64,000 nucleotides of DNA, taken from assembly GCA_963924555.1 (NCBI GenBank), contig OZ004593.1, positions 4,522,480-4,586,479 on the forward strand. Reading direction: 5' to 3'. Source of the stretch: Crambe crambe (Eukaryota; Porifera; Demospongiae; Poecilosclerida; Crambeidae). A program made the translations under genes and the position numbers. The notes beneath the pieces are model-generated. The model was given only the letters and a program-made list of their open reading frames with translations. It searched no databases and was not told the DNA's origin. This document shows positions 3,921 through 43,599 of the stretch, piece after piece (the stretch's first letter is position 1; each line of letters starts with the position of its first letter).

Positions 3921-3959
3921 ACTTAATGTAACATTACAACAAATCTTAATGTTGCAGAG

Positions 3960-4435: not shown

Positions 4436-4444
4436 TAGCTAGCT

Positions 4445-5280: not shown

Positions 5281-5289
5281 TAACAAGTG

Positions 5290-5830: not shown

Positions 5831-6465
5831 ACAGTTGCTAATGTGTCAAATTTGTGGTATGAGTGACACTGATGTCATTCTGCTGAAATACCATGAGCAG
5901 TTAAGCTGTATTAGGTGTGTGTACTGGTTGCTGTGCTCTGTGTACCCACCATTCACGCAGCTATACTTTGTTTGATATGAGTGCAAACGATGTACATTCT
6001 CACTACAGGTTTCCTACAGTTTTTATTTTTAGCTGGTGCTCTCCAGCACCCTATTTCAGCAGCACTGTACTTTATTGGAAGGCTATGACCTCTATAAAAT
6101 TATGATACCACCTTGCTCATGTGCTGAAACTTATAAACCCATACTTCATGTGCTGTGGGTGAAAGCATCATCTGGCTCATCTGAGCCAAATCATATAATT
6201 CCTTTACTTGTTGCTAAACGTGAGTTAGCCATATATGTCTATCTCATTGTCTACTCATAAAGTTATCCAGAAGCTGATGCTATACCAAGCAAAAAAGGTC
6301 TTGATCTACTCTCTTGTGATGATGTCTGGTGATTGTTCTTCTCTTTTGATCTTCTTCCACAAGTAAAAAGAAGATAATAGATTTTGAACTTGATTTGAAC
6401 GGAACTTAACTTTTGTTTTTTGTTTTTATTGCTTTTGGGATGTATAGTTGTCATCGTGATTTTAT
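5831..6465. other. No gene seen
   Basis: AT-rich, only short open frames, no recognisable motif. Confidence 0.5.
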
Positions 6466-23551: not shown

Positions 23552-23594
23552 AGCACATGAATATCAAGAAGAGATGTCTAAAAAGTCTGATATA

Positions 23595-23860
23595 CACTGT
23601 TAAAAATGAGGTGTATGATTACACCTTTTTAGGTGCTTCAGGTGACATTATGCCTGAGCACCCTTTAATGATGTTTGAACACACCCTTTGGTATTATGTA
23701 TTGAACACCCTACAGGTGCAGTGTAGCACCTTAATAACTTTCACATGCACCCTAGAGGGTGTAGCTATAACACCTGATAGGTTGAAAGAGGAACACCTTG
23801 TATCGTTTATTAAACACCCTACAGAGTATGTCATAACACCTGAATATGCAAATTGAAACA
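23595..23860 (+). repeat. Left terminal and subterminal repeats, copy 1
   Basis: After the terminal repeat, short motifs of the type GAACACCCTACAGGTG, AGGTGTA and AACACCT recur in both orientations at least ten times. Such arrays are where accessory proteins of CACTA elements bind. Confidence 0.75.
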
Positions 23861-23864
23861 CTTC

Positions 23865-23924
<60 letters not shown>
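23865..23924 (+). repeat. (AAT)n microsatellite
   Basis: About 60 bp of uninterrupted AAT repeats inside the transposon, between the subterminal repeats and the 3' end of the SAMD3-like gene. Confidence 0.95.
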
Positions 23925-23971
23925 TACTATAATAAATATTATTATATATAATACAGCACAATAATGTACAA

Positions 23972-26050
23972 CTATATTATACTCATTTTATTAAGGTTGG
24001 AGACAAGTTTAGAAGTGGGTAATGGTACTTGCTGCCCATCTTTCAACTCAAACACAAAATGTTGAAAGAAAATAAAAAATGGAGCTAAAGATTTTGGGTA
24101 CACTATGTCGTAAACAAAGTATACAACAATAAGGTCCAATAAACTGTCTTTGAATGACTTGGATTCTATTATTGTACTGCTTTCACCGGCAATAAAATAT
24201 TGTGCGTTGTCAGTACCAATTTTTCCAAGCACAATGATATATGGTGTCATCTGAGCTATATCAGCGACTTTTCTGTTTACATCAACGTCACAGTCCTATA
24301 AAATTTGATAGGTGAATTATCATAACAGAACCAGAATGAATTATTTGGGTACAGATCTGGTGTCAGTGGGATGCAAAATTTCCAGATAGCATATCATTGG
24401 CATTATGGTTATGGAATTTGCATTCGAACAGCAAGAGCTCTCATGCAGTAAGGCTTAAGATCCACCTATTCCAAATGGAGCCCAATGTACTGCTACTTTT
24501 CTACACATAATTATGTATAGCTACATAGCCTCACCTCAAAAGTGAAAATAAGAGAGTATCCTTGTGGAATTCCCCTAGTATACAGTAGCTTCATTAGTAT
24601 GGTAATACATGTGCCACATTTGAAGTCTGTAAAAGCAATCATAATAATTCAAGATAAAAATGTAACAGAAATGCAATTTCTTACCAGAATCATCAACGAT
24701 CTCATCACTATTAACATCAAGCTCGTGAAGTAGATCTTTAATTTGTCTTCTAGTGGCAGCTTCTACTTTTGCAAAGGCAAATATTTTCCCTTCCCAAGAG
24801 GACCAGGAATCCATCAAGGTTGTTACTCTGTCATTTATACCAGTAATAGTTTTAAACTCTCGGTAAAGCTACAAGATGAGGACATAATCAATTGATACAT
24901 GAGAAAATTCACAAACTTACAGCTTTTGTAGTACTTAAAGGTGGAAAAGCTTCGATGACTTCAATTATATATGGATGCCTTTCATCAATCCATTTATGCC
25001 GACCAGCAAAAGTTATTTCCATTAAGTCTTTAATCAGTGCATGATTTTTCTTCCTCTTATCACACTCTTGATTTAGTTCAGTTACCTTCAGCGCGTATTC
25101 TTCTTCTGGGAGACCGTTACTTGATTCCATCCTCAGTCGTTTCTTTGGGGGTTCACTCTTACTTGATTTGGAAGATGACTCGCTCTCATGACCTCCTCTT
25201 CTGAAGTTCTTAAAACTGTTCCTTAGCCCCATTTTCCATGATCCCTGTATTGTTATTGTTGTTATATATCATTATTATTTCAAAGGTTTACTTACCCAAC
25301 CACTTCCAAGCGGATCTGCCAGTTTATTGTATTTCTTCACTAGCTTCTCACAGACAGTTTCATACTGGAGATGATTCGGTGTTGGTGTATGCTGCAATAC
25401 AAGGGTACGCAGAACTCGTACTATCTCAGAGCGTGCTTTTGAAGAAATGACACCAGAGTCAATTGCATCACGAACAGCAGAGCTGAATGAGACAGGTTCA
25501 GGTATAACAAACTTTTGAAGCCATTGGTAATTTGGAGAGGATTGAGGTGGGGGTTCTTTAGTCTATAAGAAATCACAAACTGAGTTAGAATATATAATCA
25601 TTTGTAGCAATAAAAGCCTTGCCTTAACAGCCAAATACAAGTATAGTCCATATACTCTATGGCTATAGGTATAATAGAATATGCTTAACCTTTGGTATTT
25701 TTTCCTGAGGTTGATGCTGCTGAACTTCTTTATCTTTTGGAGCAATCTAATGAGATGATAAAGTGAGTGGCTAGCTTGATGCATTCTTAAGTCTACAGAC
25801 TAGAACCACTTACTTCTTTTTTAAGAGTCCTCATCAGTTCTTTTAATTTGATCCGAATACCCATTACTGGAACAAGTTCTTTAAGGTCCTCTTCCTCCAA
25901 GGCCAAGAAAGTTGACCCTGAAATCTCATTTTCTTCAAATTTGTGGCACAGACTCTCTGAAAATTCAAGGTCTTGTAGGTAGTCAGAGAATTGGCTAACA
26001 TTCAACTGTAGCACAGAAATGGCAGGCATCAGATCCAGAGTGTTCGCCAT
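23972..26050 (-). CDS. SAMD3-like SAM-domain protein, copy 1
   Basis: Seven exons give one uninterrupted 494-aa frame: 26050-25814, 25746-25690, 25562-25296, 25244-24921, 24868-24685, 24626-24535, 24295-23972. All introns are GT-AG, 51-239 nt. Residues 10-79 form a SAM domain (YLQDLEFSESLCHKFEENEI, then LEEEDLKELVPVMGIRIKL). Next comes a block with VIPEPVSFSSAV, YETVCEKLVKKYNKLADPLG and SWKMGLRNSFKNFRR; then a basic linker, a helical region with YIIEVIEAFPPL, and a C-terminal domain (TPYIIVLGK ... VVYFVYDIVYPKSLAPFF). This order is the architecture of animal SAMD3 (about 500 aa). The role is unknown. SAM domains oligomerise, so an accessory DNA-binding or assembly factor for the transposon is a reasonable inference. 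Start chosen at the ATG facing the shared promoter. Confidence 0.85.
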
Positions 26051-26170
26051 ATGCTTTGTGCAGCTGCTCGATTGTGCGCTTACGGCTGCTCGAACGACTG
26101 CGCATGCGCTTACATGCGAGCGCGGGCTATTCGCGCAGATAGGTACGTGAAGCCAGGTGAAGCCTACTAA
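26051..26170. promoter_or_regulatory. Bidirectional promoter region, copy 1
   Basis: The 120 bp between the two divergent ATGs are GC-rich. They contain a direct repeat: GCTGCTCGATTGTGCGCTTAC then GCTGCTCGAACGAC...GCGCTTAC (about 26063-26113). No TATA box is clear. The layout implies one promoter for both genes. Confidence 0.65.
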
Positions 26171-27789
26171 AATGGAAGGTCCATATAGACTGCTCTGCAC
26201 CGTTTGCGAGTCCTATCGTACTAATAAACTTCGTGACTTACTCCAGTATATACGTATCCTTCATGCTCATCAGCCAGGCCTTATTAATATTATTAGGTGT
26301 GGAATTGGAGGGTGCCACAGGACATATTCGAACTTTGGTACCTTTCAAAATCATATCTCAGCTTACCATAGTACCGAGCAGAATCCAACGAATATAGCTC
26401 AGACTTTTGATGACTTGGATGATGAGGATATATCTGATGAATTGCATCATGAACTGGACCCTGATGAACCAGAAGAACAGTGTGTACATGTGCCACTACC
26501 TGATCTCCAAAAATCAGCCGCACTTTTGTTACTAAAATTGAAGGAGCACCACAAACTTACCCAAAAAGCTGTGCAGGTGAACAACAGTGTGCACTCGATT
26601 ATGATTTATTGTTCCAGGATGTGATCACAGACATTACCGATGCAAATGCCGAAGTTGATCTTGGAAGTGAAAAAAAGGTTGCTGCTGCTCATTTTGATTC
26701 TGAACAAATTCTAGCTGGACAGAATCGCTGTATATTATTTATTTATAGGCATCTATTGAAGGCATCACATTGCTGTGGCAAAGTTATCTCTCCAACATTC
26801 ATTTTTGTGTGTCTAATGTGCTGATAGAAGATGGAATTAACAAAGAATCACTTTCCAAACTGGATAAGATATTCCAAAGTACTGGTACTTTTGGTAATCC
26901 ATTTGCTGGGCTTTTAACTCAGCATCAACAAACGAAGTACTATAAAGGAGAGTTTGGACTAATAGTAAGTTAATTTCGTGGGGTGGAGTCTCTGTGATGA
27001 AGGCATAATAATTATCAAAGGAACCAGTTCGGGTAACACTCGGAAAAAAGCGTGTGTGGAAGGGGTTAGGACAGAAACGGAAATGCTTGGAAGTGTGCGA
27101 CACCTTTATGTACATCCCCCTCCTGAAAACTATTAAAGTCTTATTGAACAACAAGGCCATTAGAGATCAGGTATTTTTTTATACTTTAATCATATTATAA
27201 TTATTATAGCTATGCCTTCAGATTGAAAATGGCCATTTATCTTCAAGTGGCTACATGGAAGACTTTTGTGATGGGACAGTGTTTAAGTCACACCCTCTAT
27301 TCTCTGTCCATGGCCACGGTCTCCAACTCTTTTTATACTACGACGATGTAGAGGTTTGCAACCCACTAGGATCCAAAAGAAAAATCCATAAACTAGGTAC
27401 GTTAGTAACATATACACTGTTAAGATAGGGGTACTGAAATGTGTTACCCCATAGAGATATAGGTAACCCATTTCCATGACTTGACTTAGGTTTCCATGGA
27501 AACAGTTCTGACATCATGACTTGTACTCATGATGATTACAAATTACAAAAGATTAAAGGTATCCATGGGAACCAGCCGTGGATCATGGAGCACCCTAGGG
27601 TATAATATATGTATACTCCTTGGCTATAATACCACATTCAATAGGTTTCTTCTATTTCACCCTTGGAAACATAATTCCGAAGAATCGATCAAAGATTTCT
27701 TCGATACAACTTTTAGCCATCGCAAAGAAATCAGTGATTGATGAATATGGAATTGATGCTGTGCTGAAATTTACTATGAAAAATAACTA
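26171..27789 (+). pseudogene. C2H2/CACTA-like transposase, 3'-truncated
   Basis: Exons recognisable by comparison with copy 2: 26171-26577 (two zinc-finger-like motifs, CTVC...H and CGIGGCHRTYSNFGTFQNHISAYH), 26617-about 26740, about 26750-26966 (ends TKYYKGEFGLIV), about 27022-27170 (MYIPLLKTIKVLL), about 27223-27403 (DFCDGTVFKSHPL, FLYYDDVEVCNPLGSKRKIHKL) and about 27643-27789 (YFTLGNI, LLAIAKKSVIDEYG). The last exon stops early at TAG 27787-27789. The blocks for CRHC, MHDxLEG and the C-terminus seen in copy 2 are absent. Function in life: DNA transposase whose zinc fingers would recognise DNA. It lies divergently to the SAMD3-like gene. Confidence 0.8.
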
Positions 27790-29389
27790 GTTGATGTTGT
27801 AGCAAAATAAAAGTAGTTTTGCATGTGCATAGTTAGAGTAGCTGACTTTTAGTGTAGGCCTTAAGTTACACATCATAATTATGCTATAACCATAAACTTT
27901 AAAAACCCAATTTGGTCAACTCTGTACCTGTGACGATTTTTATCATTACATTTATATATAGTGGCTAAAAGAAGAGTTTCTTGTCTATTTGGATGGAGCA
28001 TAAAAGCAAGGAAAGGGTTTTCCAAATTTGAGAAAAAGAAAATGCTCCTTAGCCCTGAGACCTTGCTGGGTTTGAAAATGACAGGTAGCTAGAGCTTCTT
28101 GTTAGCTTGCTAATATTCCTTGTTATAGTATTATCATTTATGGAATATTCTGTTTTCCATTGATGGAGTGAAAAAAAAATTGAGTGAGCACCTTCTGAAA
28201 AGTTTTTTGGGTGCAAGCGACAAAGAGGTGGAACTCATTCCAGTTAGAGGCAATTGCAGGGCTCACAGTTCCAAGCCTGATTTGGAAAAAGGAAATGCAA
28301 AGCAGAGAATGATTTCCAAACATGAATGAATCATTATAACAGAAAAAAAAAGCATGCTGCATGAATTCTTGATTATTGGTGATGAGGACTTTGCGCAGTC
28401 CTTTAGAACATTGGAGGGACTTTTTCGACCTCTGCTTAAAGTTTCAACCACGCATGCACCACCAAATGAGAATTCACTCATCTATAGACCAATTCATTCA
28501 TCTCTCATTACTTCTTCCATGATTTCATCTTTTTTCCACATGATATTTCTCTAGCCTTAATTGCTCGTACAATAGTATACCTCATTTTTTAATCAATAAA
28601 AATGTCAAATGCATCATCTATAGATCTAATACAAAATACAAGCCACTTCTGTTCACATTGAGGATCCAGTTGCTGAAGATTGGACTGCTGCTTCTTCTAT
28701 AGCTAGCTCTTCATCCAAAAGTTCCTCTAAACTCAATAACCACTCCATACATATTTTTTCACCATAGACTCTGTCCTTCACAGTTCTATAAATGTATCAA
28801 AATGGACATGCTGCTGTAACAGTAGATCCCCCATCATGTTCACCTAAAAAACCTATCAGATGATATTCTGGAAGATGGGAAATCCACCATATTTTGGTGA
28901 TGACACCAAGAATTTCTTCCACATTAAGATGAATTCATCCGATGAATAAATGCTATAATGGTAAACCCCCACCTTTGTTTACAGCTGACTTTAAATAGTC
29001 AGAGCTGTTTCAAGTTTGCTATGGATTAAAGCAAAACTTGAAAGCTAACATTCGTTCCTGCAGTCCAGGCACCATGCATATAACTCTCTTGCAGCTTGCA
29101 GAGATGCAGAAGCGTTTGATGAAGGAAGTTTAAACCCATTATCTTCTTTTACTGCCTGAATGTATCTCAGACTCATTGAGAGGGGCCTAAAAAGTGAATT
29201 ATATAGCTATAATAGCTGGATTTAAGGTTACAATCTTTGCTTACTTGTATTTCTCCTATAGCTTCAGCCATTATCGAAATACTTGCCTCAGCTACTGTTT
29301 GGCAACGTCTTTGCTGACTCAGCAAACAACGCGGATTGTATCCTAAAATCTCGCGCGAACCACCCGTTTCCAATCCCGTGTCCGGAGGT
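27790..29389. other. Transposon interior without recognisable gene
   Basis: This segment replaces the 3' half of the transposase. A coding-like snatch at about 27965-28085 reads FGWSIKARKGFSKFEKKK followed by LLSPETLLGLKMT, possibly an exon of another repeat protein. The remainder (28100-29390) has only short frames. Confidence 0.45.
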
Positions 29390-29478
29390 TATAGGGTGTT
29401 AACAGAACACCCACACCCCTTGTGGTGTGTGGAAACACTCTTGATAGGGTGTATTATTACACCTCATTTTTTACTGTG
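29390..29478 (-). repeat. Right terminal and subterminal repeats, copy 1
   Basis: AGGGTGTTAACAGAACACCC and GATAGGGTGTATTATTACAC precede the terminal CACCTCATTTTTTACTGTG. The arrangement mirrors the left end. Confidence 0.8.
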
Positions 29479-29547
29479 TAGTGAGTCCATATTATTATCC
29501 TAAGATTAATTACAAAGTCATGCATGCTTGATACAATAATAATTTGT

Positions 29548-30831
29548 TATAGTTTCCAATGGGAATACTCTTGTTTAACGAGAACAAAATAGAGGAAATG
29601 ACCAAAATAATGCAGATCATCCACAGCAACTACGTTCCCACAAATGAATGGAAAGAAGATTGTACAATTAATGGCACTGAAATTAGTATACCCAAAGCCT
29701 GTGTGCATCCTATACTTTTTGGAGGTGACCAATTAACAGCAGCACGGGCAAGGGGAGCCAAAAGGGCTAAAGGAAATTCCATTACAGCTTCTTCTCGCCT
29801 TGATGGCCTGATTCCAGTTGCTGAGGACTGGCATACTCGCCTGAATTATATGGGGGTAATACTTAGCTACAACTCAACATACAGAGCATTAATGCATGGA
29901 CTATACCCATATATATTTTTTTCCATTGTAGGTGATATGGAAGTATTGCTATTCCACAATTTCCCACACAGACCATGGGACTCTCTACCAATTGAGAAAT
30001 AGACTACATAGAACAAATGTAGTGAAAGATCCAATAAATAACTTCAATGTGGTATCTGGTCATATAATTGCGGCCCTAGCACATCTTGGACCAGAAGATT
30101 TTGATGTAAATACAGATTGGATGTTATCAAACAAAGAAAGGAAGGATTTGATTTACAGATTATCTTCCAAAATAGTCGATCAATTTATTGATTTTTCCTA
30201 CAATAGGAGTGATGATGACATCCAACAATCAAGTGATCAGATTAGAGAGTATGCTATTCAGCTCCTCAGTTTAGGATGCTTCTATCTTGAAATGTCGGAT
30301 GCTATAAGAGAAGGGGATGGAAAACGTATTTTGAGATGTTGGAGGTATTTGTTACCTATTTTTTGGAACAGCAGAAGAAAAAATTACTCAAATGAAGTTT
30401 TGAAAATGCTGTATCAACATGACTATTCATTGTCGCCAGCACATGTAGCAGAACTACTTTGGGGGAGGTGCATTAATATTCATGGGCGCAGAGGAAAGAA
30501 TATCCCAGCAGACCTCCACATGGAGCACCTAAACCGAATGGTCAAGGACTCTATCAAAGGATTGGGGACGAATAAAACCAGAACTGCTGTTACACGAGTT
30601 GGACGTGCTCTGGGAACTATTGTTCCTATCCTGGAAAATTTAGATTCAGACAATAATGTCCTTACTCTCTCTGGGGCTCATGCTAAACTTGATTCAACGA
30701 AAGATATTGAAATTGTTGCAAAAGAACTGGTTGGGGTGCAAGTATTTTCTAACATTCCAGGAAGAAAACACCTGAAATTTCCTGCTCCAAGAAGGGTACT
30801 ACATGGGCAAAAAAAAGGAACTAATTATTGA
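29548..30831 (+). pseudogene. DUF6589-domain repeat protein, 3' exons
   Basis: Two exons: an acceptor at about 29547 to 29855, and 29932-30831 (76-nt intron, joining NYMG to VIWKYCYSTIS in frame). Landmarks: GGDQLTAARARGAKRAKGNS, LDGLIPVAEDWHTRLNYMG, DHGTLYQLRNRL, HIIAALAHLGPEDFD, LLSLGCFYLEMSDAIREGDG, RCWRYLLPIFW, NIPADLHMEHLNRMVKDSIKGLG and KTRTAVTRVGRALG. This is the core of the DUF6589 family, a multi-copy protein of unknown function in sponges, cnidarians and fungi, presumed to be transposon-encoded. These exons are uninterrupted and end at TGA 30829-30831. The upstream exons are missing: the first acceptor lies 68 bp from the end of transposon copy 1. It may be a fragment, or the 5' exons were separated by that insertion. 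Confidence 0.8.
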
Positions 30832-30963
30832 CTGGATAGCTGCAAAAATAGTGACCAATAAATATTATATGAGCTGTTATTGTAACCACATTGGCATTAC
30901 TTTGCAACCTACAACAAAATTATATAATGTTATAGTCAGCCAGCAAAGCATATCAACACAAGC

Positions 30964-32040
30964 AAATTAAGTAACCTATATATGAGAAAACAAGAATTAA
31001 CCACAGTAAACCTAGCACATAAAGCCATGACTTTATTAGAACAATCAGAGTTGGGGCCCTTGCACCTCAATACAGATGATACAACGAAGATGCAGAAGAA
31101 ACTTGAGGGAGCTGCCCTTAACGGTATAGTTTTATCTGTTAATGAAGTACCAGATGGCAGTGCTTGTAGTATTATTCAAGATATGTCACAAGAGCTGCAA
31201 AAGTTACGAGAGGTAGCACATGCACTTAATATACCAAATGCAGATAAGATCAATTTTACTCTAATAGCATCTTCAACCTCAGACTCGGCATCTACTCAGA
31301 AAAAATTCCACAAACTCCTGCAAGAAGAAAGAGAAAAAGATGAGAAGAGATTTGGTGTGGCATCTCAAGAGGTGGTAGAACTTATTGAAAATTTCTGTTG
31401 CATGCACCTAGGTGTGAATATTTGAAAAGCCTTTTTAGAAGGAATGAAAAGTGTCTGTGAAGAAGACAACAGTACACAGCAGCAGGATAGTTATCCAGTA
31501 GACACACTAGTTCATGAATTTTGCAAGCTGCTAGGCAAGCATGGTGTGCCAGAATATGGTCTTGGGGGATTGTCCTTCCCAGATTTTCTGGAAGAAAATT
31601 CAGACAAAATGGAGTATTATCTGTAGTGGAGAGCTGAGGTTGCAAGACTCTACAAGGAAGAAGAAGCTAGGAGGAGTAAATAGAGGCGTGTGAAATTAGT
31701 TGAAGTGCATAGTAGGGAGGTAATGAAAAAGAAAACAATTGAAAAATTGTCTAATTTGCATTTGATAACCTCAAGTGATGAACTAATGGAGTGCCTGTCA
31801 GAAATTGATATTGAAGAGATAACTGCAAAGAAAAAAGTGCAAAAGAAGCTTGGTATAAGGGAACAGATCAAGATCCGAACAAAGGTGCTGAAACAGAAGA
31901 TTAAGATACCGTTTACAGTTAAAGGAAAGCAAAGACCATTTAATATTATTGTTCAAGAGTTTATGGACTGCATTGATGATGGAGATCGTAGCTCCCCCCC
32001 TCTGTTGACTACACTGCAGATTCTTTAGTGGGAAAGAATA
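30964..32040 (+). pseudogene. Unclassified multi-copy repeat protein with in-frame stops
   Basis: A single frame can be followed with three in-frame stops (TGA 31423, TAG about 31624, TAG about 31681). Landmarks: LSVNEVPDGSACSIIQDMSQ, LNIPNADKINFTL, DSASTQKKFHKLLQEEREKD, VELIENFCCMHLGVNI, HEFCKLLGKHGVPEYGLG, and a C-terminal block IREQIKIRTKVLKQKI with KGKQRPFNIIVQEF. I recognise the pattern as a repeated protein of sponge and cnidarian genomes, without a safe family name. A middle section of that family appears deleted near 31626. It sits directly downstream of the DUF6589 exons on the same strand, so the two may belong to one element. Confidence 0.65.
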
Positions 32041-32164
32041 TCCTTCATAAATTTGAAGTGGATGGCAAAGAGAAATAGTATTCTGGATATATTGTGGATT
32101 ACAATACATGCACACAGCTACATGAAGTTACGTATGATGAAGAAGAGGAAAATTTTTTTAAAAC

Positions 32165-32709
32165 TTAACTCAAGACATATCTCAGGGTGATCTGATAGTT
32201 TGTTGATACATTATATATATATTTTTTGTAAAGTGTTTTTAACTGCTTAGTGATGCCATTGATTGATTGTCTTGTCTGACCTAGTTCAAGCAGCAGTAAT
32301 TTTACTTCCTTTCGCACGGCACATATTTCTTCATCTTGTTCCCTCACTTTCATAGATAGCCGTTGGATCTGTACTGAATACCCCTTCACTTCATTTTGTA
32401 AATAATATACTCCTGGAGAAACACGTGTCAATTGATCAACCCCCAAAAATGATCTATACATGTAGGCAGCATGGCTCAGTGGACTCTTAAAATACTCAGC
32501 ATGTACAGAGGATCTACTATACTAGACTAGTAGTCTGACCCTTTACCTTCTTTGGGCACAGGGGGTATGATGTAAACTAGCGAGCTAGAAGAAGACTGAA
32601 TGGAAGCTGAACTTTTATAGTCAGCCACGTCCTCAACACTGACACCAACTGCCACCTCAGTAGCAAAGAACTCCTCTATCACAGGCGCTGACTCAGTCTT
32701 CTTCAACAA
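32165..32709 (-). CDS. Unidentified two-exon coding-like region
   Basis: Minus strand. A first open block (32709 to about 32545: SAPVIEEFFATEVAVGVS ... IIPPVPKEG) ends at GGTAAAG, a possible donor. A second block (about 32415 to 32200) encodes a heptad-like coiled coil, YYLQNEVKGYSVQIQRLSMK and LLLLELGQTRQSINGITKQL. No family is recognised. Possibly the C-terminal part of a repeat-borne protein. Confidence 0.3.
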
Positions 32710-32719
32710 ATTATGTCAT

Positions 32720-33685: not shown

Positions 33686-33689
33686 CTTG

Positions 33690-35210
33690 ATACCAAAAGA
33701 TACCAGCAAAGAGAAAGACAGAGAAGGCACAGAGCTGCACTAACTGACAGTGAAAGGGGAATAGAGAGAGAAGGTAGAGAGCAGGAAATGGTGAAAGCAC
33801 AACTTTAGTTGGGTATCCATCAATACTGAAACAACTCTTCACAGGAACCAGCCCAATAGATAACAATTTCAAATCAAACATCAGAAATTATAACAGTGCC
33901 TTTGCATTTGCTTCCTTTGGTGCTCAGACAAACATACCACCAAGCCATGGAAGTTACTGCTTTCGAATACATGGCCAGACATACCATTCCACAAGTACTC
34001 TCATCCTCCTGATGGAGAAGAAAGACGCTATGGCCAGTTATACATCATTGAAGGTGATCAAGCAGTAGCCTCATGAATGAACGCACCACAAAATCAAGAC
34101 TACATACCAGAGGTAATGGAAGCAATACAGATGATGATGGAAGAGGCAAACCCTTATGCCGATGCATTCAGACACATGTATGCTGAGGAAAATGAATGTG
34201 CAGCAGCTGATGGCAGAGATGTGAAACAGGTTAGGCTCTTTTTCAAACGAGGTCCTGAATGCAGAAGGTATAATAAACCAACACATGATGAAATAGCCCT
34301 GCAGTATTCATTGGCGATAACAAAGTTCCACCTTCCAACAGGGATATAGTTATCTATCCTAAAGATCAATCACCACAATAAATATCATACATGTCATGTC
34401 ACTTAGACCCTATGTGTTATCCTCTTTTATTTCCACATGGAGATCCAGGTTGGCACATGGCATGCAACATGTTATTGAACATCGCACATCAGTGAGGAAT
34501 ACACCCACAATGAAGCAATTTTACAACTACCACTTGGCTGTGTGCAATAACTTCAGCCCGGTAAGCTCTTCCAGTAATATGCTGTGGATGCTTATGAAAA
34601 ACAGAAGGGTGCAGATTGCACTACAATCATAACGACCAAGCTCAGTTCAGAGTGGATCTTTACTCAGGTTTGATACACTCTTTTGATAGAGGGGAGAACT
34701 GTTCACAGTTTAAGCTTCCAGTGCCTATCACTGAAACAAGCTCATGAACCTACAAGATCACACCCTGTTCATCATTGACGAAGCATCAATGATCCCTACC
34801 CATGCTCTCCATGCAATTGACAGGTGTCTGAGGGATATTACAGGATTAAACGTCCCATTTGGCGGCAAGGTTCTGGTGATTTCAGGCAAGTACTCCCAAT
34901 TATTCCACGAGTTCCAGCTGCGGTCATCATTGACACCTGCCTCAATAAGTCGCATCTATGGTCACAGTTCCAAAAATACAAGCTCATGCAGAATATGAGA
35001 ACTAGAGAAAGTGAGCAGGAGTTTTTCAGATGGCTTCTGGAGCTTGGAAATGGAACTCTTACAGCTCCAAGTATGCCTGGGGTCATAGAGATTCCTGTCA
35101 CATGTGCAGTGAGCTTTAACAGGGAAGAAGTTTACGGTGACATGTCCGGCACTGAAGATGTGTCTGACAGAGTCATTTTTTACCCACCAATGACAATTGC
35201 CTACAGATAA
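33690..35210 (+). pseudogene. Helitron Rep-helicase, internally deleted
   Basis: The N-terminus has a basic RERQRRHRAALTDSERG segment (33700). Next comes YNSAFAFASFGAQTN with SHGSYCFRIHGQTYH (33885-33990), the start of the Helitron-like N-terminal domain, then MEAIQMMMEEANPYADAFRH, IVIYPKDQS and YPLLFPHGDPGWH (34420-34455). The HUH replicase core and Walker A helicase segment are missing. The sequence resumes at LFIIDEASMIPTHALHAIDR (34766, Walker B), SGDFRQVLPIIPR (34880, next frame), QNMRTRESEQEFFRWLLELG and IPVTCAV. Many stops and frame changes make it dead. It belongs to a different lineage from the Helitron at 55.7-60.6 kb (FAFASFGA-type versus EWQHRGSPHVHG-type). Confidence 0.82.
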
Positions 35211-35439
35211 ACGAAGAAGTATTGCAAATGATCCTGGTGACCTGGTAAAGTTTGGAGTAATGATTCCAAGGAGTCCTGTTGATGTTTGAAGATCACCTGT
35301 GTAGAATTCAGCGCGCAATTACACGTATGATCTGCTAAAGTGCGTAAATACGTGATAACACATCAAGCATCGCGTTTGTGCGTTCGGAGATACGCGCTTT
35401 ATCGTATAATTCCGCAGAAAAAGGCATAAAAACGGCAAT

Positions 35440-35671
35440 AATCTCGCGTAAAATAACATCTACACGTGCCGTTTATCAGACAAGAAAGACCTGTTGTCCA
35501 AGGTTCTTCTTCGAGCCTACCTTGGAGGAGGTTTGCGAGTGTGCCTTTTGCTTTAGGTGCTACCAGGAGGATGGAACAGAGTGGGTGGAGTGTGGGTGTG
35601 GCTGCTGGGTCCATGACCAGTGCATGGAAGAGGTCATACTTGATAGCAATGATTTTGTCCATTTTATTTAA
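35440..35671 (+). pseudogene. PHD-like Cys-rich finger of a transposase C-terminus
   Basis: The frame reads CAFCFRCYQEDGTEWVECGC followed by GCWVHDQCMEEVI. The spacing (C-X2-C, ... W-X2-C-X1-C, ... W-X-H-X2-C) is that of the C-terminal finger seen on pogo-like and other transposases (compare about 13945-14090). The rest of the protein is missing, and the region upstream (35210-35440) is not coding. Confidence 0.5.
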
Positions 35672-35899
35672 ACTAGCAACTATGTTTTGCTTCCATACTT
35701 TTTTTTTTCCAATTTACTGCCTTGAATACAGTGGTAGCTAATGGTGCTTTTTCTCAGAATGGTACCTTAGAAATGAAAAAGTGGTAAATGGTCGACCGTA
35801 GCTTCTACATAGAACGATAATAGTAACGGTCGTCGATAAAAGAACGACATGTAGATGATTTCAAACCACAGTTTCAACATTACAGCTATCTATTTAAGC

Positions 35900-36300
35900 A
35901 TTCAGTCAAGTCTCATTTCGTAGAGGAGATTTTGAAGTTTAAGTTTGGGCTCTCTGCTACCTGCAGGGACAAAGATAGAGAAAGCAAGGTAACTGATGAT
36001 TGATAATTGGCAGCCTACGCTAGCACTTATGACGAATTTAGATACTAGGAAAATATAGGAGTTGGCAAGACCAAAAGAGAAGTGATCTCTATTGTTAAGA
36101 GGACACTACTTAAGAAGGGGAGGAGCCTTGATAGTTTTTCGCATGGATGAATCAATGAAGTACTAAGAGAAGATGCAATAGAGCCACAAGATATAATCCA
36201 GTGTCTAAGTAAAAACCAGCACACACACTCTCAAGACTTTTGCTACAGAAAAAAGTAGGTGGGAAGAGGTTGGTTAGCCAGCTGCAATGCAAAAAAGCAC
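35900..36300 (+). pseudogene. Fragment with pogo-type helix-turn-helix
   Basis: GVGKTKREVISIVKRTLLKK (about 36060-36120) matches the GYGKTRKEVLVGVETSLKRK block of the pogo-like ORF at 46550. Surrounding sequence is degraded. It lies just left of transposon copy 2. Confidence 0.4.
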
Positions 36301-36501
36301 ATGAGCACTTGTGACAAGAATGCAAGAATATGTGAGTGAAGAATCAGTTAATGAACAGTACATTGAACTTTCTAGAGCCATTGCTGATGAAACTGGACTG
36401 CTTTACAAAGGTCAAAAAGTAATACTACCAATTTCTTCAAGAACAGATATAGCAAAGTTTTTCTCAATCCAGATTGTGTTGTTATGGAATGATTTGAACT
36501 A

Positions 36502-36670
36502 CACTGTTAAAAATGGGGTGTAAGTATACACCTAAAAAGGTGTACACTATACGCTTTAAAAACTCTACCCTTGGAGTGTAAAGTTAAGGTGTATATATTC
36601 ACTACATTGGTGTATCTTTCATCTTTTTGCAGGTGTAAACTATACAACAGAGGTGTATATTATCTACTAC
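36502..36670 (+). repeat. Left terminal and subterminal repeats, copy 2
   Basis: The terminal repeat is followed by AGTATACACC, AAAGGTGTACACTATACGC, TTAAGGTGTATATATTCAC, GGTGTATC, GCAGGTGTAAACTATAC and GAGGTGTATATTATC. A GGTGTA motif occurs every 20-40 bp and continues to about 36870 beyond the nested MITE. Confidence 0.85.
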
Positions 36671-36674
36671 ATTT

Positions 36675-36832
36675 GTGACAGTCGAGGGTAGAAATCAAAC
36701 TTTATTCACGCTTCTACTTTTGAAAAAAAAAAGTTCGAAAGGCAGAAAATTTTATTTTAAAGCATCAGTCATGATAAAAGTAAACTTTGAAAAAAACGTG
36801 AATAAAGTTTGATTTCTACCCTCGACTGTCAC
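36675..36832. mobile_element. MITE, GTGACAGTCGAGGG family, nested
   Basis: Inverted ends GTGACAGTCGAGGGTAGAAA / TTTCTACCCTCGACTGTCAC are perfect and continue about 15 bp further. Flanking ATTT on both sides is a candidate 4-bp target duplication. It interrupts the subterminal repeat array of transposon copy 2, so it inserted later. The relative at 18585-18684 is shorter. Confidence 0.88.
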
Positions 36833-36992
36833 ATTTGTATATCCTTCAGGTATAAACTGTACCACATAGGTATAAAAAATTTTTAAACCAGCTCTGATAA
36901 AAGAGAATAATATAAAATAAGTAGCTAAGCAGAAAGCAGCTACTGCACATGATATAATAAATGAAATAACCAAGATAAGAACATAACTAAGA

Positions 36993-39900
36993 CTAAGCTG
37001 CAGTGTCCATTCGTTTTAGTGAGGTAACCATTTCAATTACTGAAGGTGGATCCCTCTGGGTGTCATATATACTTAAAATATAGTGTTGAACCATTATTAG
37101 AAGGGCATATAAAGTTTTTGGGTAGGCTATATCAAAAACAAAGTAAGTTCCAATAAGATGAAGTAAGGCAGTTTGAAAAATGGAGAATTCATATATTGGG
37201 TCTTCTTCAACTATAACATGAAATGTGGTTTCTTCACTGGAATAACACACCACTATGTAAGGAGCTTTCAACTGCACAGATTTGGCAAAACTTGATAGGT
37301 CATCCGAATCCTTAAAAAAAGATCATAATCATTATCATTGATCTGTAGCTATAGTAAAGAGAGTTACCTTTGCAATATAGACTAGTCTTTCTTTACATGT
37401 CTTTGGAACCAAAAACTCCGAAAGGAGTCGGAAAGAAATAAAACCTGAACATGAAGCAGACAATACCATGAAATTCAGTATCTGTGTACAAGCAGGACAA
37501 AATAACAGACGCACACACACAAGACTCTCACAACAAAATTATCAAGACACAGATGGACAGCACAAACATTCATACAAGAACAAAGGAACCAGCTAGATTT
37601 ACACAAGAAATAAGGCAGTCTGACACCATTTTTGAGGTGTGCACTATTACGAACATGGAGAGAAGAGTACTTGTCATCACAGACGAATAACAAAGTCACC
37701 AGAGGGGATACAGATGTAAATACACAAACTCTTCACACAAGAACAAAACCCACAGACACGCGCACACACAAAAAGATTCTCCAAGGCACATCATTGAGGT
37801 GTGCACTATTAAGAATGAGCAACACAGATGCACAAGACAACAAAAGCAAAGTCATCAGAGAGGGTCACATAGATGCACAAACAATATAGCAAAGTTATTA
37901 GGACAGATGCACGTGTATAAACCTCTCCTACAAGATAGACACAACACACAAACCTCTTCTACAAGAGCAAAGTCACCAGAGAGGACACAGATATACACAA
38001 AAACTTTCACAAAAAATTCATCAGGAGACAGACACACACGCACAAATCCCTCCTACAAGAGGAAGTCATCAGGACACAAACACACAATACACAAACCTCT
38101 CCTACAAGAGCAAAGTCATCAGAGAGGGCACAGACACATGCACAAACCCTCATGCAAGAACAAAGTCTTCATCAAGACACAGACGCACACACACAAACCC
38201 CTCCTAAAAGAGTAAACAAACCAGTAGTCATGGGCCAACACAAAACCAAACCTCCCAGCTATACTAGTAACAACTATAATAAGAGAAATGAAAAAAAAAA
38301 GTAGGGATGACCATTGCTTTAAAAAAGTAAGGAAATAAGGGTAGGCTATGAAGAATGGAAGGATGGAAATGGGATCAATCTTTGTTCTGAATATTCAGCC
38401 AACAATCCCTACATATACGCACTATTATCTGAAGCTACCCAACATATATGTAGGGATTGTTGGCTGGATATAAAGAAAAAAGATTGATCCCATTTCCATC
38501 CTTCCATAACCTATCCTTGTTTCCTTACTTTTTCAAGCAATGGTCATCCCTACATCTTTTTTCAATACGCGTCATCCCTACATAAAGAGAGCTACTGCTC
38601 GCTCTGATGCTAACTTTAGAACAATAAACTGCCCATAGCTGCAGAGTAACTGTGCATGGGTACAGGCTAGTTAATACCAGAGGTGGATTCCACAGACAAA
38701 CCCACATACATAAAACACATTCAGTCATGTACATACCTTGATCAAATTGTCCTGCGTCTGATGAGGATTCATCCAAATGATCCAGCAACTGCTTCACCTT
38801 GGGTCGGTTAGACTTTTCCAAGTGCGAGTACGAAATAATCCTGTTCTGCCACAGAGACCATTCTTCCATCAAAGAATTAACACTTACTCCATCATCCAAG
38901 CCAATAACAGTTTTAAATTCTTCCCTAAACTGAAATAAAAGTAATATGATAAGGATTACCTAAATGCTACAATAATAGTAATAACTTACAATCTTTCTAA
39001 ATTTGAGAGAAGGATACATTTCCAATACTTCAGACACGTGAGGCAAGTCCTCTTGAATCCACTTGCGCCTGTTCCCATATGTAGAAGAAGTAAGTTTTTG
39101 GACAGTTGCCATACACCTATTCTTCTTTCGCTTTTTACACTCCTCTTTAAGAGTGATAATACTAGCCTCAAATGACTCATCCAATTGTAAATCAGTGCTA
39201 TCAGACCCAACACGTGCTGACTTCTTTCGTTTGCGAGGTGGCTCTTCAGAACTAGTAGTAGATGGTGTGAATGATCTTCTTAAAAATTTGAATCTATCCC
39301 GTAGTTTCTTTTTCCATGAACCCTATTACAAGTCATACAATAGCAAAGTCACACCATTGCAATAGCATGGGCTGGAGATCTAAGTTACACATGGGATCTA
39401 AACACCTACTTCCTGGATAAAGTATGCTGGCAAACCCCAGACTAAAATTACCACACTTACATAGCCTGTACTTCCAATATCATCCTTCAAGGTAGGATAC
39501 TTTTCTATAAGTTTACGACACACTAAATTGTACTGTTCACTACTTGGTGATTTTGTATGGATCATCACTAAACAAGAAAGTGATTGTATTATTTCTGTAC
39601 GGATTCGTTTTGTCAATCTGCCTGTAGTGATTGCCTCTTCTGTTCGAGTAGAAAAATTTGCAGGGATTTCAAAATTGTGATGCCATTGATCTTGACTGCT
39701 GCCTTCACAAGGTAACTTGAAAAACAAAAACAAAAAAATTTATCAATACAATGAATCAAAAGCACAAAAACACTAGGCAATGTTTAGTAAGGTCGCTATT
39801 TCTATCTTGGAGGCACAGTCACTTCTCACTCACCCCCTTTACTGAATCTCCCCACCCAACCCAACCCAACCCCTGCATTAACAGGAAACATAGAGTTATC

Positions 39901-40286
39901 AGTTATAACCACTAAAACTTAATTACCTTGGCATTTTTCTGTGGAGGTAAATCTTTCTCAAGTGGCAACTCATGAAGTGATGAATAGCTGCCTTTGGCAA
40001 TATCCTACAATACAGTAATTTAGCTAGTCTGTAATATTTGCTTAGCTAGTCAGCTTACCTTCTCATCCAAAACAATTTTTTCTAGGCTAATTCTGTCGAC
40101 AATTCTTGGTGAAATTTCTTTCAGATGCTCACTAGTCATAAGCAGTAATGTCTCCCCATTCACACCATGCATTTTAATATCAACTACACCCTGAGGAATA
40201 TCTTTGGATAGTAGGAATTCACCGAGTTCTTCAACAGACAAATCTTTGACGCTACTGGCGCTGCTAGCCATCGTACGTCTTTCCAC
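36993..40286 (-). CDS. SAMD3-like SAM-domain protein, copy 2
   Basis: Seven exons give one uninterrupted 493-aa frame: 40286-40059, 40004-39927, 39715-39461, 39322-38990, 38929-38737, 37444-37368 and 37310-36993, all GT-AG. Exon number and intron phases match copy 1. A SAM domain is at residues 14-75 (LSVEELGEFLLSKDIPQGVV, LLLMTSEHLKEIS). Then come FEIPANFSTRTEEAI, YNLVCRKLIEKYPTLKDDIG, GSWKKKLRDRFKFLRRSF, a basic KRKKS segment, HVSEVLEMYPSLKF and a C-terminal domain with APYIVVCYSSEE and GTYFVFDIAYPKTLYALL. This is SAMD3-like architecture. Protein identity to copy 1 looks low outside these blocks, so the copies are old relative to each other and yet both open. The fifth intron (1.3 kb) is swollen by a foldback element and a minisatellite. 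An alternative start is MASSAS, five codons downstream. Confidence 0.85.
37484..38220 (+). repeat. Imperfect minisatellite in an intron
   Basis: Degenerate units of roughly 55-65 bp with the core CAAACCTCTCCTACAAGAGC, then AAAGTCATCAGAGAGG and GACACAGACACAC. The open frames across it are artefacts of composition. It lies within the fifth intron of the SAMD3-like gene. Confidence 0.7.
38288..38565. mobile_element. Foldback element
   Basis: Two arms of about 110-125 bp (38288-38416 and 38443-38565) are reverse complements with few mismatches. GTAGGGATGACCATTGCTTT is mirrored by AAGCAATGGTCATCCCTAC, and CCAACAATCCCTACATAT meets ATATATGTAGGGATTGTTGG near the centre. No coding capacity: a non-autonomous foldback or MITE in the intron of the SAMD3-like gene. 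Confidence 0.88.
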
Positions 40287-40464
40287 TACTTTGCAGCTGC
40301 TTTGTAAGTTTCTCCAGCGGCTCTATAAATTTGCACATGCGCACTTCAATCTTTAGTGGTGTGCACCTTTAAGAAACTGTGTAACTAAGACAACTGAATG
40401 CTCTCGATCGCAACTCCTGACCGTATAGATCGCGATCTCCTGACCGTATATTTTTGCTAGCTAG
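40287..40464. promoter_or_regulatory. Bidirectional promoter region, copy 2
   Basis: 178 bp between divergent ATGs. A direct repeat of about 23 bp (GATCGCAACTCCTGACCGTA then GATCGCGATCTCCTGACCGT, about 40407-40450) sits just before the transposase ATG. Copy 1 has an unrelated direct repeat in the same place. Confidence 0.6.
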
Positions 40465-43461
40465 ATGGATCCATCAAGTATAAAATTGTGTCAACTCTGC
40501 TCTTTCAAGGCACCAGACCTGAAATATCTATTGAAACATATTCGCCAAGTGCATGCCCACAAGCCTGGATTTCAAATAGTATGTGGTCTTAGCTCTTGTC
40601 CAAAGAGGTTTGGAAACTTTGAAGTGTTTCGCAACCATGTTTATGACTTTCACACTAATCATGAAACTGTTGTACCCCAGACATCTTCACTTTCTAATGA
40701 AGAAGAGCTTTGTAATGAATCACCCGAAAATGAAAATTCCTATGAAGAATGTTCTCATTCCAAGAAGATTAGAGTAGCAACATGGATACTGAAAGTTCAA
40801 GAGACCTATAAACTCCCTCAGTCTACTATGGAAAGTATTCTGAAGGACACTACTGGACTCATCCAGGATTTATTGATCGATATTCGTGATGATGTTGAAT
40901 CCTGTCTGACTAATGCAGGGGTTAATTTTTCCAATGTTTCAGGACTCTCTGAGCTGTTTGACTCATCATCTCTATACGCCAATCCTTTTTCAGGTCTAGA
41001 TAACCAATATTCTCAGTTGAAATTCTATAAAGACAAGCTTAATTTAGTGGTATGTTACTATTTCTGCTTTTATCAGTATTAGCATGTTTTTATGATTTTT
41101 CATGTGCAGGAGCCTCAGCCTGTACTTTTAGGTACGGAGAAGCAGTGGAAGGGAAGTGGGACAAAGAGATCATATGCTGATGTACGGGAAGAGATGATGT
41201 ATATTCCAATCCTAAAAACTATTCAAAACTTGCTTGATGACCCGGGGATTCTAAAACAAGTATGTTGGAGTCCTGATTAAGGTTTGGACAGATTGTCTCA
41301 AGAAAATTCATCCTTTATTTGGAGGTTAATCAATATTCTCTTGCAGATTGATGATGGTCATAAATCAACAGATTTAGTTATGCGAGATTTCTGTGATGGA
41401 AAAAAGTTTTCTCAGCATCCGTTACTCAAGAAAGACCCTTCATTTCTTCAAATTGCTCTCTATTACGACGATCTTGAAGTTTGTAATCCGATTGGATCCA
41501 GGCGTATTATTCACAAACTTGGTAATACACTCTATTTGATAATGTTTGATAATTCCATGTGCTATTTTCATTGTACAGCTGTATTTTACTTTTTTCTTTG
41601 TAATATTGATCCAATGCTTCGATCAAAAGTGAGACGAATACAGCTGGTAGCAATTGCTAAGAGTGAACACTTCAAAAGGTATGGCGCTAATCTCATTTTG
41701 CAACCAATGATTGAGGACATAAAGAAGTTGGTAAGTGCATGACTGATCTGCTGAGCTGTGCTTAAATTTTTTTACAGGAGGCAGGTTATATATTCAACAT
41801 TGGTGGTGTGCCTAAAGTTAAATACGGAACCATCTGCTTACTACCAGCAGATAACCTTGCTAGCAATGCTTTAGGTGGGTTTAAAGAGGGTTCAACTGCA
41901 AATCGAGGCTGCCGTCACTGTCTTTCTACGCCATCTGAAATGAAGTCAATTTTTTCTGAATCGCAACTAGTTTTGCGTACTTCTGATGATCATTCTATGA
42001 AGTGTGATCAACTAGATGCAGCTGCTACTCAGCATAACCGTGATGCTCTATCTACTGAATTTGGTATCAACCACCGATCCATTTTAAACCAATTACAGTA
42101 CTTTGATGTCTGCTCTGGAGCCCTAGTTCAAGATGTCATGCATGATGTACTTGAAGGTGTGTTAATTACATGACCACAACATTATGCATGCATGTTGGTG
42201 TATGGTGCATTTTATGCAGGCATGCTTGAATATGAGACGAAGGAACTTTTAATCAGCATGAATCATATTATTCACTGGACTACTTAAACCAGCAAATAGC
42301 TGGCATAGAACTTGGCTACATGGAGAGCCGAGATAGACCATCACAAATTAGTTTAAGTACATTGAACAGTGTGGACCACAAATTGAAACAAGAAGGTACG
42401 TATAATTGAAAGAAATAATAATTATATAGCTAATAATAATATGGTGTTAGCTCTACAGATGTGGCTATTAGGAAGGTTGCTTCCTGTCATGGTTGGGGAT
42501 AAAGTTCCTGTTGGCGATGAACACTGGTTAAATTATCTTGATCTTTTGACGATTACGGATCTTCTTTTAGCTCCGGAGATCACTGAAGATGACATTTCTC
42601 ACCTGTCAGTTTTGATCAAAGATCATCATCAAGAATTGTCAAACTATATCCTCATGCATCGGTAACACCCAAGATGCACTACCTCATACATATGGCGAGG
42701 CTCATACTTGAGTAGGTCTATAAGGTTTAGGGGTTCACAACTTAATATGTGGTTGAATTTTTCTAGGTACGGGCCATTACGACAGTACTGGACCACAAGA
42801 TTTGAGGCAAAACATTCCTATTTCAAGAAGTTAACTCAACATATAGGCAATTTCATTAACCTGCCTTACACTTTAGCAGTACGGCATCAAAAATTTCAAT
42901 GCTATCACAAACTGAACAGCAAAGACTACTCTTCTGGAGTCATTGATGTTGGCCCAGGTGAATTTCTGATGATGTGCGTTACTATTGTTATGACTTGTGC
43001 ATCTACACTTTTATTTTGTAGCTACAACTATTCCTGTTGTGACAGCTCCAAGTAGTATACCAAGCTCGGGTGCAGATATACAAAGGTGTGTAACCAGTTA
43101 CATGACCACTTAGACAAGGATGCAAATTATTATTAGGGTTAAATGGATTGAACTGGATGGTACCATGTACAAGAAACCCTCTACTTTGGTACTACGCAAT
43201 AATGAATCCGAGGACTATCCAACATTTGGAAAGTTACTTGACATATTCTTGACAGATTCAAAAGTCTATTTTGAAGTACAGGAGTATACTACACTAGAAT
43301 TTAATAGCCATTTTCATTGTTTCACTGTTCAATTAAGTAGTGTTAAACGAATTGTAAGTCAAAATCAACTTTTCTCACACTATCCACATCAAATCAGGCC
43401 CCTACCATGTAACAATGGTGTTTTGTGCATTATTCCAAAGCATCATTTTGTAAGCTCATGA
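40465..43461 (+). pseudogene. C2H2/CACTA-like transposase with two frameshifts
   Basis: Exons: 40465-41049, 41110-41259, 41347-41521, 41579-41730, 41778-42156, 42220-about 42393, 42451-about 42710, 42767-about 42956, about 43022-43086 and about 43137-43461; roughly 800 aa. Two zinc fingers come first (CQLCSFKAPDLKYLLKHIRQ..H; CGLSSCPKRFGNFEVFRNHV..H). Next are CDGKKFSQHPLL, IALYYDDLEVCNPIGSRR, VRRIQLVAIAKSEHFKRYG, CLLPADNLASNALGGFKEG, GCRHC, YFDVCSGALVQDVMHDVLEG, WLLGRLLPVMVG, LAPEITEDD, YGPLRQYWTTRFEAKHSYFK and a C-terminal WIELDG domain. The YYDD-NPLGS ... D-N-G-F ... CRHC order resembles tnp2/Transposase_21 of CACTA elements. One-base deletions near 42277 and near 42650 break it; all splice sites still look good. 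Confidence 0.85.
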
Positions 43462-43464
43462 AAT

Positions 43465-43598
43465 TATACATATACACCCTTATTATTACAGTTTACACCA
43501 TAGTATTGTTATTATTTACACCATTGTAAATTTACACCCCAGATGATACTAAATTATACACCCATGGGTACTTTATATACACCCCATTTTTAACAGTG
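43465..43598 (-). repeat. Right terminal and subterminal repeats, copy 2
   Basis: TATACACCC, AGTTTACACCATAG, TTTACACCATTG, TTTACACCCCAG, TATACACCCATG and TATACACCCC are spaced 15-30 bp apart, ending in the terminal repeat. They are inverted relative to the left end. Confidence 0.88.
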
Positions 43599-43599
43599 T

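What the first reader, a model, noticed from the sequence alone, without database searches (positions are those of the whole stretch)
23595..43598. A two-gene transposon pairing a SAMD3-like protein with a zinc-finger CACTA-like transposase
Seen: two elements (23595-29478, 36502-43598) share inverted CACTG termini, TA flanks, subterminal GTGTA/TACACC arrays and the same divergent gene pair. Known: CACTA elements start CACT(A/G), have subterminal repeats and need an accessory protein (TnpA in plants) that binds them; animal SAMD3 has the same domain order as the accessory gene here. Inference: the SAMD3-like gene is the accessory factor of an animal CACTA-like family, and host SAMD3 could be related by domestication or capture. 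I do not know of this pairing being described.
Basis: partly seen in the sequence, partly recalled or inferred. Interest (0 to 1): 0.92.

Follow-up and report, generated by a model that had tools for sequence, protein, structure and literature searches.

The report
Two-gene transposon with SAM-domain partner
This eukaryotic genome carries a diverse, recently mobile family of jumping genes in which a cut-and-paste enzyme usually travels back-to-back with a second protein resembling the animal protein SAMD3, which suggests that the second protein helps the element move.

Summary
E1 (23595-29478) and E2 (36502-43598) are transposons with CACTG/CACAG ends, TA outside, and subterminal GGTGT/ACACC arrays. 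E2 carries a SAM-domain (SAMD3-like) gene head-to-head with a C2H2/DDE transposase gene; E1 keeps the SAMD3-like gene but lost most of the transposase. The pairing is not accidental: 36 of 57 transposase clusters in the genome have a SAMD3-like cluster within 10 kb, 36 of 36 divergent, random mean 0.64; 4 of 7 unpaired ones read further also carry it. Eight divergent representatives keep the pair, and the two proteins diverge in step (r=0.98). Three copies differing at 10 and 22 sites sit in different flanks with TA on both sides and both genes open: the unit moved recently. The transposase shows the D, D, C(2)C, H(3)H, E signature of the CACTA/Mirage/Chapaev clade and matches a Transposase_21 protein (hhalign E=1.8e-11), but TA flanks differ from CACTA's 3 bp. 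An end-binding accessory role for the SAMD3-like protein is inference; kinship with host SAMD3 is untested. Ten paper searches found no description of the pairing.

The parts
23595..29478 (+). Element E1 (subfamily B), derivative without most of the transposase, TA on both sides (23593-23594, 29479-29480)
23595..23625 (+). E1 left terminal inverted repeat, CACTGTTAAAAATGAGGTGTA...
   Evidence: (I5)
29448..29478 (-). E1 right terminal inverted repeat, CACAGTAAAAAATGAGGTGTA... on the minus strand
23595..23840 (.). E1 left subterminal array, 9 GGTGT/ACACC copies (0.8 expected)
29395..29478 (.). E1 right subterminal array, 6 GGTGT/ACACC copies (0.7 expected)
23975..26050 (-). E1 SAMD3-like gene: all five profile blocks (SAM, S3, S4, S5, S7) matched
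26172..27770 (+). E1 transposase, 5' part only: C2H2 exon and first quarter of the main profile
27771..29400 (.). E1 tail with no match to the full-length copies; stands in place of the rest of the transposase
   Evidence: the tail matched only itself among the loci then held
36502..43598 (+). Element E2 (subfamily A), near-complete two-gene copy, TA on both sides (36500-36501, 43599-43600)
36502..36522 (+). E2 left terminal inverted repeat
   Evidence: I8
43578..43598 (-). E2 right terminal inverted repeat
   Evidence: I8
36502..36657 (.). E2 left subterminal array, 7 GGTGTA/TACACC copies, the inner four 20-23 bp apart
43417..43598 (.). E2 right subterminal array, 7 GGTGT/ACACC copies
36996..40271 (-). 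E2 SAMD3-like gene, multi-exon: SAM 40059-40271, S2 39927-40004, S3 39461-39715, S4 38990-39322, S5 38735-38929, S6 37368-37442, S7 36996-37310
   Evidence: exon limits approximate, splicing not tested
40272..40464 (.). ~0.2 kb upstream region shared by the two start codons
40465..43461 (+). E2 transposase gene, about nine coding blocks: C2H2 fingers 40465-41049; D1 41347-41520; D2, CxxC and MHD 41778-42161; HxxxH about 42640-42712; E 42768-42959; C-terminal block 43138-43458; a frame break near 42640

Best explanation
A family of cut-and-paste DNA transposons of the CACTA/Mirage/Chapaev (CMC) clade that encodes two proteins from one short divergent promoter region: a C2H2-zinc-finger DDE transposase and a SAM-domain, SAMD3-like protein. 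Shown: the two genes move as one unit, the pair has been kept through long divergence, and codon positions differ as expected under purifying selection in both. Inferred: the SAMD3-like protein is the accessory factor of the transpososome. It would bind the GGTGT/ACACC arrays (in several ends spaced ~20 bp, about two helical turns), directly or through the transposase fingers, and its SAM domain would oligomerise to bring the two ends together, a role comparable to TnpA of maize En/Spm but filled by a protein that I take to be unrelated.
For: Same head-to-head pair in subfamilies A, B, C, D, E, F and in L054, L055, L059. 36 of 57 TPase clusters lie within 10 kb of a SAMD3-like cluster, 36 of 36 divergent, random mean 0.64, maximum 4 in 1000 draws; of 7 unpaired clusters read 5 kb further, 3 carry several SAMD3-like blocks and 1 a short piece. 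Control: 2 of 24 Transposase_21 (PF02992) matches in the genome have a SAMD3-like cluster within 10 kb. Three copies L048/L051/L052, 22 mismatches (L048-L051) and 10 (L051-L052) in alignment columns 400-6000, different flanks, TA both sides, both genes open. Pairwise identities of the two proteins correlate, r=0.98, Spearman 0.73, 105 pairs. Between L048 and L049 third codon positions differ at 0.56-0.68 and second at 0.18-0.29 in both genes. hhalign to a Transposase_21 protein of the same genome E=1.8e-11 over 394 columns. Motif spacing D1-D2 93-94 (3 of 3 rows that hold both), D2-C 20-21 (4 of 4), first H to E 24 (5 of 5). Subterminal arrays.
Against: No DNA-binding domain was recognised in the SAMD3-like protein by Pfam; PDB sequence matches were SAM domains and weak coiled-coil or other chance-level rows. 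The transposase has its own zinc fingers and could bind the arrays alone. 23 of 59 SAMD3-like clusters have no TPase hit within 10 kb, though 8 of them have a terminus within 3 kb on the expected side. 21 of 57 TPase clusters have no SAMD3-like hit within 10 kb; 7 of these were read further, and 3 showed none or only a doubtful 19-position match (L053, L058, L057). The predicted transposase structure was too poor to use (mean pLDDT 45). The correlation is inflated by near-identical copies; the trees agree on shallow groups but differ in weakly supported deep branches.
Confidence: 0.6

Rival explanations
1. The SAMD3-like protein is not part of the transposition machinery but a regulator or anti-silencing factor that the element carries (for instance it recruits or blocks host chromatin proteins through the SAM domain), as TET/JBP genes may do in fungal transposons.
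For: 8 of the 18 PDB sequences matched are SAM domains of polycomb-type proteins (polyhomeotic, PHC3, Scm, Sfmbt, L3MBTL3), all weak. Fungal transposons, CMC-clade ones included, carry TET/JBP genes that the author thinks help escape methylation-based silencing (PMC12730594, passages).
Against: The pair is held in every divergent representative read in full, whereas the passages on TET/JBP describe transfers between transposon lineages. The subterminal arrays call for a binding factor.
Confidence: 0.25
2. The SAMD3-like protein acts mainly by regulating the shared divergent promoter or as a transposition repressor, the transposase being sufficient for mobility.
For: The two start codons are only ~0.1-0.2 kb apart, and E1 keeps the SAMD3-like gene while losing most of the transposase.
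Against: The arrays lie at the element ends, not at the promoter.
Confidence: 0.12
3. Accidental pairing: a host SAMD3-like gene captured once and hitch-hiking.
For: 23 of 59 SAMD3-like clusters show no TPase within 10 kb.
Against: 36 of 36 pairs are divergent; the pair spans representatives with 19-54% identity in the SAMD3-like protein; codon positions suggest purifying selection on both genes.
Confidence: 0.03

Closest known systems
Plant CACTA (En/Spm) elements with TnpA and TnpD
   Same: CAC... ends, a DDE transposase of the same clade and a second element protein; tnpA and tnpD products are stated to be essential for transposition (PMC1636069, passages). Subterminal repeats of plant CACTA are recalled.
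   Different: TA flanks instead of a 3-bp duplication; the second gene is a separate divergent gene with a SAM domain, not a splice product; similarity to TnpA was not tested; transposase below the Pfam cut-off.
Animal CACTA-related elements (SmTRC1; animal EnSpm of Repbase)
   Same: Eumetazoan-type [LVI]-D-x-[LM]-H-x3-L-G motif (here D-[VI]-M-H-D-x-L-E-G at the like place), CxxC motif, several exons.
   Different: The SmTRC1 paper reports a Transposase_21 domain, a possible CCC core at animal ends, and accessory products with no similarity found elsewhere (passages); no SAM-domain gene in the passages read.
ESTA and Mirage (CMC-clade transposons)
   Same: TA duplications (ESTA from PMC12730594; TA for Mirage is recalled); CA..TG ends; D, D, C(2)C, H(3-4)H, E signature (PMC12730594, passages).
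   Different: ESTA is reported from rust fungi with TET/JBP; no SAM-domain partner in the passages read. Phylogenetic placement could not be tested, no sequences being available.
Vertebrate SAMD3
   Same: Recalled, not tested: N-terminal SAM domain followed by a long conserved region, with a similar layout.
   Different: SAMD3 is a host gene, mostly single copy as far as I recall; the relation to the transposon gene is not established here.

Membership tests
CMC (CMCT) clade of DDE transposons | Catalytic D, D, E with C(2)C and H(3-4)H between the second D and E | tested here: met
   Motifs and near-constant spacing in the rows that hold them; row C lacks the D1 stretch and row D the D2 exon in my concatenations. 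Catalytic role inferred from the motif. Definition from PMC12730594 (passages).
CMC (CMCT) clade of DDE transposons | Sequence homology to known CACTA-type transposases | tested here: met
   hhalign E=1.8e-11 to L030, itself a PF02992 match at 1.1e-18; DUF4218 and Transposase_21 only below cut-off.
CMC (CMCT) clade of DDE transposons | 5'-CA..TG-3' ends and 2-5 bp target duplication | tested here: met
   CACTG/CACAG ends; of 13 copies with both ends read, 9 TA/TA, 1 CA/CA, 3 without match (L009, L010, L014). Without an empty site, TA could also be read as part of the ends.
Canonical CACTA (EnSpm) | 3-bp target site duplication | tested here: not met
   The three bases before and after the element are ATA and TAG for E1, CTA and TAC for E2; the TA/TA copies agree over two bases.
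Canonical CACTA (EnSpm) | Transposase_21 above Pfam cut-off | tested here: not met
   14.5 bits against 28.6 for L048; no match at E<=1 for the three members of A1.
Canonical CACTA (EnSpm) | Subterminal repeats bound by a second element protein | tested here: inconclusive
   Arrays and second gene present; binding not testable here.
SAMD3 family | N-terminal SAM domain | tested here: inconclusive
   SAM_1/2/3 best E 5.6e-5 to 0.044 per scan, below cut-off where the score was shown; PDB SAM chains from E 6e-4.
SAMD3 family | Full-length homology to animal SAMD3 proteins | not testable with these tools
   No eukaryotic protein set available; similarity is recalled only.

The most novel reading that the evidence does not exclude
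Animal SAMD3 genes descend from, or donated, the accessory subunit of an ancient CMC-clade transposon, so that a human gene of little-known function would be a domesticated transpososome partner whose SAM polymer once bridged transposon ends.
Probability: 0.33. Interest if true: 0.85.

Novelty: new variant of a known kind. Interest (0 to 1): 0.64.

Why it matters
Plant En/Spm needs a second element protein (PMC1636069), but the papers I could search name no conserved counterpart in animal-type elements (ten searches, listed in the full report). Here is a candidate kept across deep subfamilies, with near-identical, apparently intact copies, so a two-component mechanism becomes directly testable. 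It also gives a concrete hypothesis for the origin and biochemical role of SAMD3, and warns that SAMD3-like gene models in genomes may be transposon genes.

Tried and rejected
Strict CACTA assignment: rejected on the 2-bp TA flanks. Accidental pairing: rejected. Host SAMD3-like genes in this genome: the divergent lineage L048/L049, which I first suspected to be host genes, proved to be the same two-gene arrangement; five 'lone' SAMD3-like clusters (C10:4.37 Mb, C17:3.43 Mb, C1:8.58 Mb, C15:4.84 Mb, C3:1.57 Mb) gained a divergent TPase hit when other TPase queries were run. The remaining 23 of 59 were not resolved, so a genuine host copy is not excluded. Relatives elsewhere: viral contigs and genome contigs gave none. 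Structure of the transposase: mean pLDDT 45, so no fold search was made. Pfam and PDB gave no function for the SAMD3-like C-terminal blocks. Literature: 10 searches, listings seen, gave no paper linking SAMD3 or a SAM domain to a CACTA/EnSpm transposon; passages of three papers were read (PMC12730594, PMC1636069, PMC9004415). Repbase and most subscription journals were not searched. Of the 20 stretches fetched by termini (L014 and L015 are one element), six elements hold both genes (L009, L010, L011, L012, L014+L015, L018), L016, L019, L020 hold SAMD3-like parts only, L013, L017, L022 show weak matches to both genes, L021 and L023 to the SAMD3-like gene only, and L024-L028 neither in the stretch read; the transposase fragments near the terminus of L028 lie on its other side.
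Full report
What is there. The window lies at C16:4522480-4586479 of a 143-Mb eukaryotic assembly in 119 contigs, species not named. Two elements were claimed. Both have inverted ends beginning CACTGTTAAAAATGRGGTGTA (CACAGTAAAAAATG... at E1's right end), with TA just outside each end. Allowing three mismatches, the 21-mer occurs 100 times in the genome against 10 for the same pattern read backwards.

The ends carry arrays. In 16 element ends of 350 bp from eight elements, GGTGT/ACACC occurs 3 to 11 times, against 0.5-1.7 expected from dinucleotide-preserving shuffles. In several ends neighbouring copies are about 20-23 bp apart (E2 left 87, 108, 131, 151; L011 right 176, 199, 220, 242; L012 left 40, 59, 79, 98), about two turns of the helix; in others the spacing is irregular. 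The right ends of L009 and L010 (3 copies each) and of L013 (5) do not exceed the highest of 300 shuffles.

The genes. E2 holds, on the minus strand, a multi-exon gene starting at about 40271 that encodes an N-terminal SAM-like domain and four further conserved blocks (S3, S4, S5, S7), and on the plus strand from 40465 a multi-exon gene with two C2H2 fingers followed by a transposase. The start codons are about 0.2 kb apart. E1 has the same SAMD3-like gene and only the 5' part of the transposase gene; from about window 27770 it leaves the sequence of its full-length relatives.

What the transposase is. Pfam gives weak C2H2 matches and below-cut-off DUF4218 (E=0.089, E2) and Transposase_21 (E=0.02, L048) matches. 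A profile of three subfamilies aligned with hhalign to an 880-residue stretch of the same genome that matches Transposase_21 (PF02992, E=1.1e-18) at E=1.8e-11 over 394 columns, with the D2-C(2)C, MH, H(3)H and E motifs in register. Spacing: D1 to D2 93-94 residues (3 of 3 rows that hold both), D2 to C 20-21 (4 of 4), first H to E 24 (5 of 5). PMC12730594 (passages read) defines the CMCT clade by D, D, E with C(2)C and H(3-4)H between the second D and E, mostly CA..TG ends and 2-5 bp duplications. These features are met. The same paper takes 3-bp duplications and CAC..GTG ends as consistent with EnSpm; the 3-bp feature is not met here.

Is it one mobile unit? The best evidence came from a divergent lineage. 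L048 (C8), L051 (C1) and L052 (C10) are three copies of a 5.86-5.87 kb element with ends CACAGTAAAA..TTTTACTGTG, each with TA on both sides in different flanks; within alignment columns 400-6000 L048 and L051 differ at 22 positions and L051 and L052 at 10, besides a few short gaps. In all three the main transposase exon is open over 638 codons and the SAMD3-like exons are open. The two-gene unit has therefore moved recently as a whole. Two-ended copies read: 13; TA/TA in 9, CA/CA in one (L017), unmatched in three (L009 and L010, which share the flanking bases shown and look like a segmental duplication, and L014).

Is the pairing constant? Exon matches from three SAMD3-like queries and three transposase queries were grouped by hand and script into 59 and 57 clusters. 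Within 10 kb, 36 of 57 transposase clusters have a SAMD3-like cluster, and in 36 of 36 the two are divergent; random placement gives 0.64 on average and at most 4 in 1000 draws. At 5 kb the figure is 33 of 57. I then read 5 kb upstream of seven of the 21 unpaired transposase clusters with profiles: L054, L055 and L059 carry several SAMD3-like blocks in the expected place and orientation, L056 carries a short piece of S3 and S4, L057 shows only a 19-position S3 match that overlaps the transposase match and is doubtful, L053 and L058 show none and no zinc-finger exon either. The other 14 unpaired clusters were not read. As a control, 2 of 24 matches of the ordinary Transposase_21 family in the same genome lie within 10 kb of a SAMD3-like cluster. 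The search tool states that its counts are lower bounds.

Age and selection. Among eight representatives (E2, L011, L012, L048, L049, L050, L054, L059) the transposases are 32-59% identical and the SAMD3-like proteins 19-54%. Over 105 pairs from 15 elements the identities of the two proteins correlate with r=0.98 (Spearman 0.73), and the trees share the groups (E2,L009,L010), (L011,L014,L018,E1), (L048,L051,L049), (L050,L059) and (L054,L055), while deep branches are weak and differ. Near-identical copies inflate r. Between L048 and L049, third codon positions differ most in both genes (transposase 0.57-0.68, SAMD3-like 0.56-0.64) and second positions least (0.18-0.29), as expected under purifying selection on both proteins (the S4 block could not be scored).

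How it may work. Both proteins are kept, both start from one short divergent region, and the ends carry arrays of one short motif. The simplest reading is a two-component transpososome: transposase for cutting and joining, SAMD3-like protein for recognising or bridging the ends, with the SAM domain as oligomeriser. This works like En/Spm, where two element proteins are essential (PMC1636069, passages). DNA binding by the SAMD3-like protein is not shown; its best PDB sequence matches are SAM domains. Anti-silencing or promoter control are live rivals.

Kinship with SAMD3. In this genome no SAMD3-like gene was shown to be a host gene, but 23 of 59 clusters remain without a transposase hit within 10 kb (8 of them have a terminus within 3 kb on the expected side), so a host copy is not excluded.

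Novelty. Ten full-text searches of the open-access library listed no paper that joins SAMD3 or a SAM domain with an EnSpm/CACTA transposon; PMC9004415, on transposon protein fossils, mentions EnSpm but not SAMD3 (term search of its text). Repbase itself was not searchable, and such elements may be listed there without comment. I therefore rate it a new variant of a known kind.

Noticed in passing
window 29932-30831 (+): DUF6589 protein fragment (PF20231, E=3.3e-28) between E1 and E2.
   Followed up: no
window 34824-35210 (+): PIF1-like helicase fragment (PF05970, E=1.5e-12), possibly from a Helitron.
   Followed up: no
window 3116-3274 (+): Weak match (E=2.7e-4) to the MHD region of the same transposase profile: a possible third, decayed copy in the window.
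   Followed up: no
L013 1592-7021: An element with the same kind of ends holds a large unrelated set of open reading frames between weak matches to the transposase and the SAMD3-like gene: captured or nested cargo.
   Followed up: partly
C9:7805091-7805264, C9:7825605-7825774, C10:5637311-5637482, C21:3266346-3266517: Short (~0.17 kb) stretches with CACTGTTAAAAATGGTGTGTT-type ends in inverted orientation, MITE-like derivatives.
   Followed up: no
C3:5109102, C8:5059241, C1:1958094, C3:1810751: Four weak S3-block matches of equal identity (33%, E~2e-5) with no transposase hit within 10 kb: perhaps another element family carrying part of the SAMD3-like protein.
   Followed up: no
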